Of a stretch of DNA of 64,000 bases, positions 19,328 through 24,531 are shown in pieces. The notes beneath the pieces were generated by a model. The model had not been told where the DNA came from and did no database searches. It saw nothing but the letters and a program-made list of their open reading frames with translations. Positions within the stretch are counted from its first letter, which is position 1; the number at the start of each line of letters is the position of its first letter. The stretch is from the NCBI GenBank assembly GCA_030684555.1, contig JAUXVN010000004.1, positions 1-64,000 on the forward strand, written 5' to 3'. This DNA comes from Ignavibacteria bacterium (GTDB lineage Bacteria; Bacteroidota; Ignavibacteria; Ignavibacteriales; Ignavibacteriaceae). The translations under genes and the position numbers were made by a program.

Positions 19328-20275
19328 TCAACCATCAAAAATAAATTCTAATCTAACCCCTCTCTCGATAATTAGATTTTTATATGATAATTTAAGTCCA
19401 TCACTTAAAAATGATTGATCGATAAGATTAATAACCCGGTCTATTTTTTTTATAAACAACTTCACAGAATTTTCAATCTGCTTATCCTCCAACCCGGATG
19501 ATTTTGCAAAAGATAAAAAATCACTCAATTTCAATTTACGTCTCTTTCCGTTAATAGAAAGAGCTGATTCATCCGGATCATCTTTTTCCGAGATAACCAA
19601 TCTTGTTGAGACTAAGTCATAAGCGGGTGCTAACATAATTAAATCATTTTTGTAAATCATCGAAAAGTTTTTCAAATGCATATCCGCATTTCCGGTTAAA
19701 AATGAAAACAGAGTAATTTGGAAAATCGTTAATTTATCCAATCCAGGATTAGAAGAATATTTATCAATTAATTTAACAACCGATTCCATTGAACCTTTAT
19801 ATTTATCCTCGGTTAATCTTTCTGATAATTGACAAAAATCTTCCATGTGGAGTTTATTGTTTTTTTCACGGTCAATACGTTTTGTAAGATAAGCAGTTTG
19901 ACCGCTTTTAAATTTTATTAACGAATGTTGAACTGTATTTATGCCGAATAATCGAGCGAGTTTCATTGTAACATCTTCAATTTCCGGAAGAAAATTATAG
20001 TGCGGTGACGGGGGTTTGAGAATATAATTTCCCCATAATCCGACAATAACTATTTTAGGTTCTGATTTGATTGTTTTATCTATTTCAACAGATAACTTGG
20101 ATTGAACACCGGGAATGGCTGTTCTTTTTTCGATAATTATTTTACCGAGTTTATAAAGTTCATCTAATTTATATGGGACAATAGGAGCAATTTCATTCCC
20201 GAAAAATTTTTTACTGCAACTCAAGTGAAAATCGCCCGAATCCAATTCACCGTAACAAAAAAGACATTTACTCAT
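19328..20275 (-). CDS. hipT: HipT kinase toxin of a hipBST system
   Basis: A 315-residue HipA-fold Ser/Thr kinase lacking the N-terminal subdomain, which is encoded separately upstream; this is the hallmark of HipT in tripartite HipBST systems, where the target is thought to be an aminoacyl-tRNA synthetase. Visible motifs: an N-terminal CLFCYGE...HLSC zinc-binding-like element, glycine-rich loop AIPGVQSKLS (residues 53-62), YILKPP lysine, GNADMHLKNF catalytic loop (D198, N203) and APAYDLVS metal-binding aspartate (D220). In E. coli O127 HipT the glycine-rich loop begins with an autophosphorylated SIS; here it is AIP, so that mode of control would differ. ATG 20275 is chosen over GTG 20281 because GAAGAGAG is then at normal spacing. 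Confidence 0.85.
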   Translation of the reverse strand: MSKCLFCYGELDSGDFHLSCSKKFFGNEIAPIVPYKLDELYKLGKIIIEKRTAIPGVQSKLSVEIDKTIKSEPKIVIVGLWGNYILKPPSPHYNFLPEIEDVTMKLARLFGINTVQHSLIKFKSGQTAYLTKRIDREKNNKLHMEDFCQLSERLTEDKYKGSMESVVKLIDKYSSNPGLDKLTIFQITLFSFLTGNADMHLKNFSMIYKNDLIMLAPAYDLVSTRLVISEKDDPDESALSINGKRRKLKLSDFLSFAKSSGLEDKQIENSVKLFIKKIDRVINLIDQSFLSDGLKLSYKNLIIERGVRLEFIFDG

Positions 20276-20600
20276 TATCACTCTCTTCGATTGGTACTAC
20301 GCTTACTGCACCAATGCAGTCTTTGCAAACTGATAATAGTAATCCAATTCTATCTTTTGGATTAAGTTTCCAATTCTCTTGTGCAATTTTAAGAAGCCAT
20401 CCTTCGGGAATTAATCCATCAAAAAAAGGGAACATTGTTTTCGAAAAAAAATTTTTGTCGATTAACGGAAGAGTTAAACTTATAGGAGGAAAATTGTTCG
20501 CGATATATTCTTCATCATAAACAAAAGAATAACCACTCTCATCTTCAGATATGATACCGGCATAATTATTTTTAAAGAAAACTTTTCCTTTTCTATTCAT
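20268..20600 (-). CDS. hipS: HipS-like small protein, HipA N-terminal subdomain
   Basis: A 110-residue protein matching the HipA N-terminal subdomain 1: GKVFFKNNYAGIISEDESGY, then SLTLPL and FFSKTMFPFFDGLIPEGWLL. The (L/M)P(L/I) and FFxGLLPEG words are diagnostic. In HipBST systems this separate piece, HipS, acts as the antitoxin for HipT. It overlaps hipB by 8 bp at its start and hipT by 8 bp at its end, so all three genes are translationally coupled. Confidence 0.85.
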   Translation of the reverse strand: MNRKGKVFFKNNYAGIISEDESGYSFVYDEEYIANNFPPISLTLPLIDKNFFSKTMFPFFDGLIPEGWLLKIAQENWKLNPKDRIGLLLSVCKDCIGAVSVVPIEESDNE

Positions 20601-20811
20601 TTTTACTTTCGCGTATTATTTCACCGGGAATCATTTCATGCCCAAAAAGTTTTAATACCTGATTAACTTTATCAAGTCTTAAAGATTCCTTTCCCTGCTC
20701 AAGGTCGCGAATAAATCTCAAACCAACACCGGCTTTTTCAGCAAGACTTTCTTGAGTTAAAGCGAGAAGTTTTCTTCTATTTTTAACAAATTCTATTAAT
20801 CGTGTTTTCAT
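20593..20811 (-). CDS. hipB: HipB-like XRE-family DNA-binding protein
   Basis: A 72-residue helix-turn-helix protein: RRKLLALTQESLAEKAGVGL followed by RFIRDLEQGKESLRLDKVNQVLKLFG, a textbook XRE/HipB domain covering nearly the whole protein. In HipBST loci it represses the operon and augments complex formation. It is the first gene of the operon. Three 18-bp operator-like boxes lie within 110 bp upstream and the nearest overlaps the likely promoter. Confidence 0.9.
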   Translation of the reverse strand: MKTRLIEFVKNRRKLLALTQESLAEKAGVGLRFIRDLEQGKESLRLDKVNQVLKLFGHEMIPGEIIRESKNE

Positions 20812-20821
20812 AGTTGAAATT

Positions 20822-20920
20822 TATATCATTACGGGTATAATGTCAACATAAACTATTGAATATATATCACATCGGGTATATTATACGATATTAAATTATT
20901 TTTATACTGTTTTGGGTATA
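20822..20920 (-). promoter_or_regulatory. Three-box operator array and promoter of hipBST
   Basis: Plus-strand boxes: TATATC-ATTA-CGGGTATA (20822-20839), TATATC-ACAT-CGGGTATA (20863-20880) and TATACT-GTTT-TGGGTATA (20903-20920). Starts are 41 and 40 bp apart, close to four helical turns. Each is an imperfect inverted repeat with TATA outer arms, comparable to TATCC-N8-GGATA of E. coli HipB. On the coding strand TTGACA (20839-20844) and TATAAAT-type sequence next to box 1 make a plausible promoter (spacing about 15-16 bp), with box 1 lying between the elements. Confidence 0.7.
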
Positions 20921-21039
20921 GGTTGATGTGGTGGGCTTTTTAATAGTTGCTTGTAGTCATTCTCCCAGAACCTTTGCAAAACTTTGAAGTTTAATTTGTT
21001 TTAAAACTTTACCGCTACGTTCAGTAAGAGAAAAATGTT

Positions 21040-21104
21040 GTCATGCTGAATTTATTTCAGCATCTTTCCACAAGAAGAGAGATCCCGAAATGAATTCGGG
21101 ATGA
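21040..21104. repeat. GTCATGCTGA...TCAGCATC palindromic repeat plus second hairpin
   Basis: GTCATGCTGAATTTATTTCAG-CATC is a hairpin; it is followed by ATCCCGAAATGAATTCGGGAT, a second hairpin. Same family as 2881-2910 and 22223-22260. The gap 20921-21196 holds no gene. Confidence 0.75.
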
Positions 21105-21196
21105 CAGCAAGGGTAGGTATGTGTCATGCTGATGGCTATTGAAACAAACCAATCAAACTATTACAAAAGCATCAAACAGAAGTTTTAAAGTTTAAT

Positions 21197-23941: not shown

Positions 23942-24175
23942 ATGACAAATTTAATTGTGGCTGATCCCAAAATAATGATGGGAAAACCTGTCGTTTCCGG
24001 AACAAGAATAACGGTTGAATTAATTCTTGAAAAATTAAGTTTCGGTGAATCTATCGAACAAGTTTTAGCAGCATATCCAAATCTTACAAGGGAAGCAATT
24101 TTTGCAGCTCTCTCTTTTGCTAAAGAAGCCCTTCGAGCTGATGTTCAATATCCGATTGGTGATAAAGTAGCATGA
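23942..24175 (+). CDS. DUF433 antitoxin-like protein
   Basis: A 77-residue DUF433 protein: DPKIMMGKPVVSGTRITVEL, then ILEKLSFGESIEQVLAAYPN and LTREAIFAALSFAKE, the winged-helix-like pattern of this family. DUF433 proteins sit upstream of DUF5615 PIN-like proteins as a presumed antitoxin. It overlaps the next gene by four bases (ATGA). AAGGCGAG provides a ribosome-binding site. Confidence 0.85.
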   Translation: MTNLIVADPKIMMGKPVVSGTRITVELILEKLSFGESIEQVLAAYPNLTREAIFAALSFAKEALRADVQYPIGDKVA

Positions 24176-24531
24176 ATCTGCTTATTGATGAAAGTGTTGA
24201 TAAGCAGATTTCAGATTTACTGAAAATCGAAGGGCATAATGTAATCTATATTGCTGAGTCTTCGCCTGGGATTTCAGATGATTTGGTGTTTGAGAAAGCT
24301 ATTAAACATAATGCTATATTAATTACAGCCGATAAGGATTTTGGTGAGTTAGTTTTTAGACTGAAAAAAATATCGACAGGGATTTTATTGATCAGATTGT
24401 CAGGAGTTCCATCAAGTGAAAAAGCGAGAATTATCTCAGATATACTAAAGCAATACTCGAAAGACCTGCACAATTCTTTCTCGGTTATTGATTCGAATTC
24501 AATCCGAATTAGAAGAGTAATTAATTCATAG
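24172..24531 (+). CDS. DUF5615 PIN-like toxin
   Basis: A 119-residue PIN-like protein of the DUF5615 family: MNLLIDESVDKQISDLLK, GHNVIYIAESSPGISDDLVF, AILITADKDFGELVF, GILLIRLSG. Aspartates D6, D42/D43, D62 and D65 are positioned as acidic metal-binding residues of PIN RNases. Unlike the PIN gene at 5.76 kb it is complete. It forms a putative toxin-antitoxin pair with the overlapping DUF433 gene. Confidence 0.8.
   Translation: MNLLIDESVDKQISDLLKIEGHNVIYIAESSPGISDDLVFEKAIKHNAILITADKDFGELVFRLKKISTGILLIRLSGVPSSEKARIISDILKQYSKDLHNSFSVIDSNSIRIRRVINS

What the first reader, a model, noticed from the sequence alone, without database searches (positions are those of the whole stretch)
20822..20920. 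Three phased operator-like boxes upstream of hipBST
Boxes with 18-bp pattern TATAyy-N4-yGGGTATA start at 20822, 20863 and 20903, spaced 41 and 40 bp. Regular spacing near four helical turns suggests cooperative HipB binding along one face, with box 1 overlapping the presumed promoter.
Basis: partly seen in the sequence, partly recalled or inferred. Interest (0 to 1): 0.65.

Follow-up and report, generated by a model that had tools for sequence, protein, structure and literature searches.

The report
Triple HipB operator array before hipBST
Three evenly spaced 18-bp DNA sites in front of a three-gene toxin-antitoxin operon (hipBST) are almost certainly docking sites where the operon's own HipB protein switches the operon off; sites at the same spacing occur in nearly all of about 90 related operons, and their letters change together with the DNA-reading helix of HipB.

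Summary
Three 18-bp boxes lie at 20822, 20863 and 20903, spaced 41 and 40 bp, upstream of the minus-strand hipB-hipS-hipT operon. They are not chance: a matrix trained only on other species ranks them above every other site in the 64-kb window. Among related loci, 16/19 with the window's HipB helix type and 62/65 of the sister type carry box triads spaced 39-42 bp (shuffles: 0.1-0.3). Five held-out plasmid loci all have them. Half-site letters follow the HipB recognition helix: 'VGLRF' goes with TATACC/GGTATA, 'VALTV' with TATAT(G/C)/(G/A)CATATA. The three HipB residues most informative about operator class (30, 32, 36) all lie in or beside that helix. Box 1 sits inside the predicted promoter (TTGACA-N17-TAAATT). 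HipB autoregulation through three operators is strongly supported; cooperative binding on one face is not shown, and 40-41 bp is 1-2 bp short of four turns of 10.5-bp DNA. Triple operators were already shown by gel shift for Legionella HipBST (53-bp gaps); Ignavibacterial relatives with Legionella-like HipB have that layout (12/12, 70-72 bp). This is therefore a second operator type of a known kind of autoregulation.

The parts
20822..20839 (-). HipB operator box 1 (promoter box), TATACCCGTAATGATATA on the gene strand, 10 nt before the hipB ATG
   Evidence: Zero-mismatch match; best site in the window for a matrix trained on other species; identical in the congener L010
20863..20880 (-). HipB operator box 2, TATACCCGATGTGATATA
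   Evidence: counterpart TATACCCGATATGGTATA in congener L010
20903..20920 (-). HipB operator box 3, TATACCCAAAACAGTATA
   Evidence: counterpart TATACCTGAAAAGGTATA in congener L010
20841..20846 (-). Predicted -35/-33 element TTGACA of the hipBST promoter
   Evidence: Promoter scan, 10 of 12 matches; TTG-N20-TAnnTTT layout around a box is shared with other Ignavibacterial loci
20816..20823 (-). Predicted -10/-7 element TAAATT(TC), sharing two bases with box 1; predicted start of transcription is at or near the hipB ATG (inferred)
   Evidence: identical in the congener
20593..20811 (-). hipB, 72-aa HTH regulator; recognition helix residues 31-39 (LRFIRDLEQ)
   Evidence: TIGR03070, HTH_3, nearest solved structure HipB(Lp) 8ezt, predicted model
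20268..20600 (-). hipS, 110-aa Couple_hipA protein (presumed antitoxin), overlapping hipB by 8 nt
   Evidence: PF13657 / TIGR03071
19328..20281 (-). hipT, 317-aa HipA_C kinase (presumed toxin), overlapping hipS by 14 nt; the only HipA_C match in the genome
   Evidence: PF07804; nearest solved structures HipT(Lp) 8ezr/7vkb, E=1.3e-49

Best explanation
The three boxes are operators for a HipB homodimer that autoregulates the hipBST operon. Each box is an 18-bp imperfect inverted repeat, TATACC-N6-GGTATA, read by HipB's recognition helix, in which Gly30, Arg32 and Asp/Glu36 set the preference for the CC/GG step (inferred from covariation). Box 1 fills the spacer between the -35 and -10 elements, so HipB bound there should block RNA polymerase. 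Boxes 2 and 3, 41 and 81 bp upstream, probably hold further HipB dimers or HipB-HipS-HipT complexes side by side and strengthen repression; that last step is inferred. When free HipB/HipBST falls, the operon is derepressed.
For: Triads spaced 39-42 bp occur in 16/19 GLR-type and 62/65 ALT-type loci; dinucleotide shuffles give 0.1-0.3 loci, and at the stricter threshold unrestricted pair distances peak only at 40/41 and 80/81. A matrix trained without the window ranks its three boxes first. Operator letters predict HipB type in 86/86 loci, leave-one-out. Five held-out plasmid loci with the GLR helix each show exactly three boxes at 40-41 bp, and one plasmid locus with a different HipB helix shows none. 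HipB positions 30, 32 and 36 separate operator classes perfectly and rank top of all positions, followed by 33 and 37; the predicted recognition helix is 31-39. Box 1 is nested in TTGACA-N17-TAAATT, and the same TTG-N20-TAnnTTT layout surrounds box 2 in other Ignavibacterial loci. Precedent: purified HipB(Lp) shifts DNA with each of three operators (PMC10653801), and E. coli HipB alone represses the hipBST promoter (PMC10627512).
Against: No binding data exist for this HipB or, in the papers searched, any class-2 (TATA-type) HipB. The GLR-to-ALT helix/operator change happened only about once on the HipT tree, so covariation rests on few independent events. A few loci lack a clear third box (L014, L015, L018, L089) and some have four. 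The promoter is a consensus match only.
Confidence: 0.9

Rival explanations
1. The boxes are operators of another regulator of the host cell (a global or phage-type Cro/C1 repressor), not HipB.
For: The boxes resemble generic Xre-family operators, and no binding data exist here.
Against: Box letters change with the HipB recognition helix across 86 loci; the arrays travel with hipBST onto plasmids of other families; exact sites are essentially confined to this promoter in the genome.
Confidence: 0.04
2. HipB binds the boxes strictly cooperatively in phase on one face of the helix, with the 40-bp lattice needed for contacts between neighbouring complexes. (This is a stronger form of the best explanation, not an alternative to HipB binding.)
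For: The spacing is fixed at 40 plus or minus 1 bp in 184 box-to-box intervals of arrays called with 39-42 bp allowed (unrestricted distances agree), and the Legionella-like class has 70-72 bp; both are near whole turns (4 and 7) if the local repeat is about 10.1 bp. The PDB holds an E. coli HipA-HipB-O2-O3 complex on two operators (5k98, title seen).
Against: At 10.5 bp/turn neighbouring boxes are rotated about 53-68 degrees (class 2) and 93 degrees (Legionella-like class). Authors of the Legionella work suggest intermediate occupancy (PMC10653801).
Confidence: 0.45
3. The triad is a chance or low-complexity product of AT-rich promoter DNA, or a recent local duplication.
For: The region is AT-rich, and the loose pattern with 2 mismatches is not rare.
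Against: Shuffles give almost no triads; only the boxes repeat, not the DNA between them; the same lattice is found in dozens of distant loci with class-specific letters.
Confidence: 0.01

Closest known systems
Legionella pneumophila HipBST operators O1-O3 (PMC10653801)
   Same: Three evenly spaced 18-bp inverted-repeat sites upstream of hipBST, O1 overlapping the predicted promoter; homologous HipB, HipS and HipT.
   Different: Gaps there are 53 bp (71 bp start to start), against 22-23 bp here. In Ignavibacterial loci with Legionella-like HipB helices the box is TTACNG-N6-CNGTAA at 70-72 bp; here it is TATACC-N6-GGTATA at 40-41 bp. Binding was shown for Legionella and not tested here.
E. coli K-12 hipBA operators O1-O4
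   Same: HipB-type HTH dimer, several operators in the promoter of its own operon, TAT/ATA at the outer ends of the inverted repeat (TATCCN8GGATA; from own knowledge).
   Different: Bipartite hipBA rather than hipBST; different half-site, spacing and HipB sequence (24% identity to 3dnv/5k98 chains).
E. coli O127 HipBST (PMC6581861, PMC10627512)
   Same: Three-gene hipB-hipS-hipT operon; HipB alone represses the promoter.
   Different: HipT is much more distant (7ab3, E=9e-15, against 1e-49 for Legionella HipT). Operators were not defined in the two papers as far as searched.

Membership tests
HipBST tripartite toxin-antitoxin operon | Gene order hipB-hipS-hipT with HTH, HipA N-subdomain and HipA_C core-kinase proteins on separate ORFs | tested here: met
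HipBST tripartite toxin-antitoxin operon | HipT lacks N-subdomain 1 but keeps the kinase motifs | tested here: met
   317 aa, PF07804 only; Gly-rich loop IPGVQSK and GNADMHLKN catalytic motif present
HipBST tripartite toxin-antitoxin operon | HipS neutralises HipT; HipT is toxic | not testable with these tools
   Needs expression assays
HipBST of the Legionella type | Closest relatives among characterised systems are HipT(Lp) and HipB(Lp) | tested here: met
   the authors report HipBST(Lp) homologues widely in the FCB superphylum (PMC10653801)
Legionella HipBST operator set | Three 18-bp operators with 53-bp gaps | tested here: not met
   Three 18-bp boxes, but with 22-23-bp gaps and a different half-site. 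Ignavibacterial relatives with Legionella-like HipB do meet the spacing
HipB autoregulatory operators | Site bound by the cognate HipB | not testable with these tools
   Indirect only: covariation with the recognition helix
HipB autoregulatory operators | At least one operator overlaps the operon's promoter | tested here: met
   Predicted promoter only

The most novel reading that the evidence does not exclude
A three-operator array at fixed spacing may be a general trait of the Legionella/FCB branch of HipBST. Each HipB class would have its own box and its own spacing (40-41 or 70-72 bp, i.e. 4 or 7 turns of about 10.1-bp DNA), the array acting as a scaffold on which HipB or whole HipBST complexes stack, with operator specificity set by two or three recognition-helix residues that can be swapped.
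Probability: 0.4. Interest if true: 0.6.

Novelty: new variant of a known kind. Interest (0 to 1): 0.45.

Why it matters
In the papers searched, operators for HipBST had been described only in Legionella. This gives a second operator code conserved across Bacteroidota and Ignavibacteria, on chromosomes and plasmids, with a named candidate specificity switch (HipB G30/R32/D36 to A30/T32/K36). It turns questions about how HipBST senses its own level, and why there are three sites at a fixed distance, into simple swap and spacing experiments.

Tried and rejected
Chance or low complexity: rejected by shuffles and out-of-sample ranking. A HipB regulon elsewhere in the genome: no excess of near matches over the reversed-pattern control, and one exact site outside this promoter, so no sign of other targets; that outside site's context was not examined. 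A second Hip kinase in the same genome: none. A congener-genome pattern search used a mistyped 19-letter pattern and is uninformative. Two papers on HipBA-DNA structures were not held. I did not fetch the Legionella hipBST operator DNA, because its HipT is annotated as an injected effector; I relied on the published description. Helical phasing on one face: computed and only approximately met.

Full report
Observation. Searched loosely, the pattern is common enough to arise by chance, so I did not rely on it. A position matrix built from 53 boxes of other species, leaving out the window and its congener, gives the three window boxes the top scores in 64 kb (19.6, 16.5, 14.8; next 9.6). In the whole 4.34-Mb genome a slightly looser exact pattern has four hits, three of them here.

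Surroundings. The boxes lie upstream of an operon on the minus strand: hipB (20593-20811), hipS (20268-20600) and hipT (19328-20281), with overlapping ends. HipT is the only HipA_C protein in the genome. The nearest solved structures are the Legionella proteins HipB(Lp) and HipT(Lp). On the gene strand, box 1 lies between TTGACA and TAAATT with a 17-nt spacer, equivalent to TTG-N20-TAAATTTC. Five other Ignavibacterial loci have the exact TTG-N19/20-TAnnTTTG arrangement around their second box. In the window genus the promoter therefore sits on the proximal box, whereas in those relatives it sits on the middle box; the rest of the array shifts accordingly. This is a consensus argument, not a mapped promoter.

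Conservation. I collected 110 HipT-bearing loci, located hipB in 105 and read their upstream DNA. With a class-neutral score (outer TATA/TATA plus Y5/R14), triads spaced 39-42 bp occur in 16 of 19 loci with HipB helix 'GLR' and 62 of 65 with 'ALT'; shuffled sequences give 0.1 and 0.3 loci on average. At the stricter threshold, unrestricted pair distances peak only at 40/41 and 80/81. Six loci on plasmids were then fetched as a held-out set: all five with the GLR(F) helix show three boxes at 40-41 bp, and the one with an unrelated HipB helix shows none.

Covariation. The boxes change with the protein. GLR-type HipB goes with TATACC/GGTATA half-sites and ALT-type HipB with TATAT(G/C)/(G/A)CATATA. 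Leave-one-out matrices assign 86 of 86 loci to the right class. Without naming any region, mutual information between operator class and each HipB residue ranks positions 36, 32 and 30 first (perfect separation), then 33 and 37. In the predicted model the recognition helix is residues 31-39. By alignment to 434 Cro/repressor-type HTH proteins (own knowledge), 32 and 36 correspond to base-contacting positions. On the HipT tree the ALT clade arises once; three loci branching just below it (L055, L079, L090) keep the GLR helix, and the two of them with enough upstream DNA keep CC/GG boxes. Of all HipB positions, these basal loci side with the CC group alone at 30 and 32 and at the variable position 6. 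The weakness is that this is close to a single evolutionary switch.

Second class. Twelve loci from the same family have HipB with a 'GKT/GRT/GKS' helix like HipB(Lp). All twelve carry three TTACNG-N6-CNGTAA boxes at 70-72 bp; shuffles give none, and 0 of 91 class-2 loci have them. This matches the published Legionella layout of 18-nt operators with 53-bp gaps (PMC10653801), where binding to each operator was shown by gel shift. The window's array is therefore the counterpart of an experimentally supported system, with its own box and spacing.

Mechanism. HipB dimers, alone or with HipS-HipT, most likely occupy the boxes and repress the operon; box 1 directly occludes the promoter. Shown here: box positions, conservation, covariation, promoter-like sequence. 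Inferred: binding itself, repression, the role of boxes 2 and 3. E. coli HipB alone represses its hipBST promoter, more efficiently with HipT present (PMC10627512).

Helical phasing. Mean spacing is 40.4 bp (GLR) and 40.0 bp (ALT), i.e. 3.85 and 3.81 turns at 10.5 bp/turn; the Legionella-like class gives 6.74. Both become integers (4 and 7) only at about 10.0-10.1 bp/turn. 'Near four turns' is fair; 'one face' and 'cooperative' are not established.

Novelty. Papers found by full-text search describe HipBST operators only for Legionella (open-licence papers only). I rate this a new variant of a known kind.

Noticed in passing
[quoted passage not shown] VA|VPGVQPK in 25 ALT loci), so this form of self-inactivation may be absent or different there.
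   Followed up: partly
window 21020-21120: An interspersed repeat containing GATCCCGAAATGAATTCGGGATGACA; 23 matches in the genome.
   Followed up: partly
window 23942-24531 (+): A DUF433-DUF5615 gene pair overlapping by 4 nt, resembling a VapBC-like toxin-antitoxin pair.
   Followed up: no
L082:1797-2025 and L092:5864-6092: Additional ALT-type HipB genes near hipBST, with boxes of the same operator class at 40-bp spacing upstream of each; possible cross-regulation.
   Followed up: partly
L021, L042, L083, L088, L101: Arrays extended to four boxes at the same 40-bp spacing.
   Followed up: no
window 20811-20823: The -10-like hexamer ends 6 nt before the hipB ATG, so the hipB mRNA may be leaderless (inferred).
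   Followed up: no
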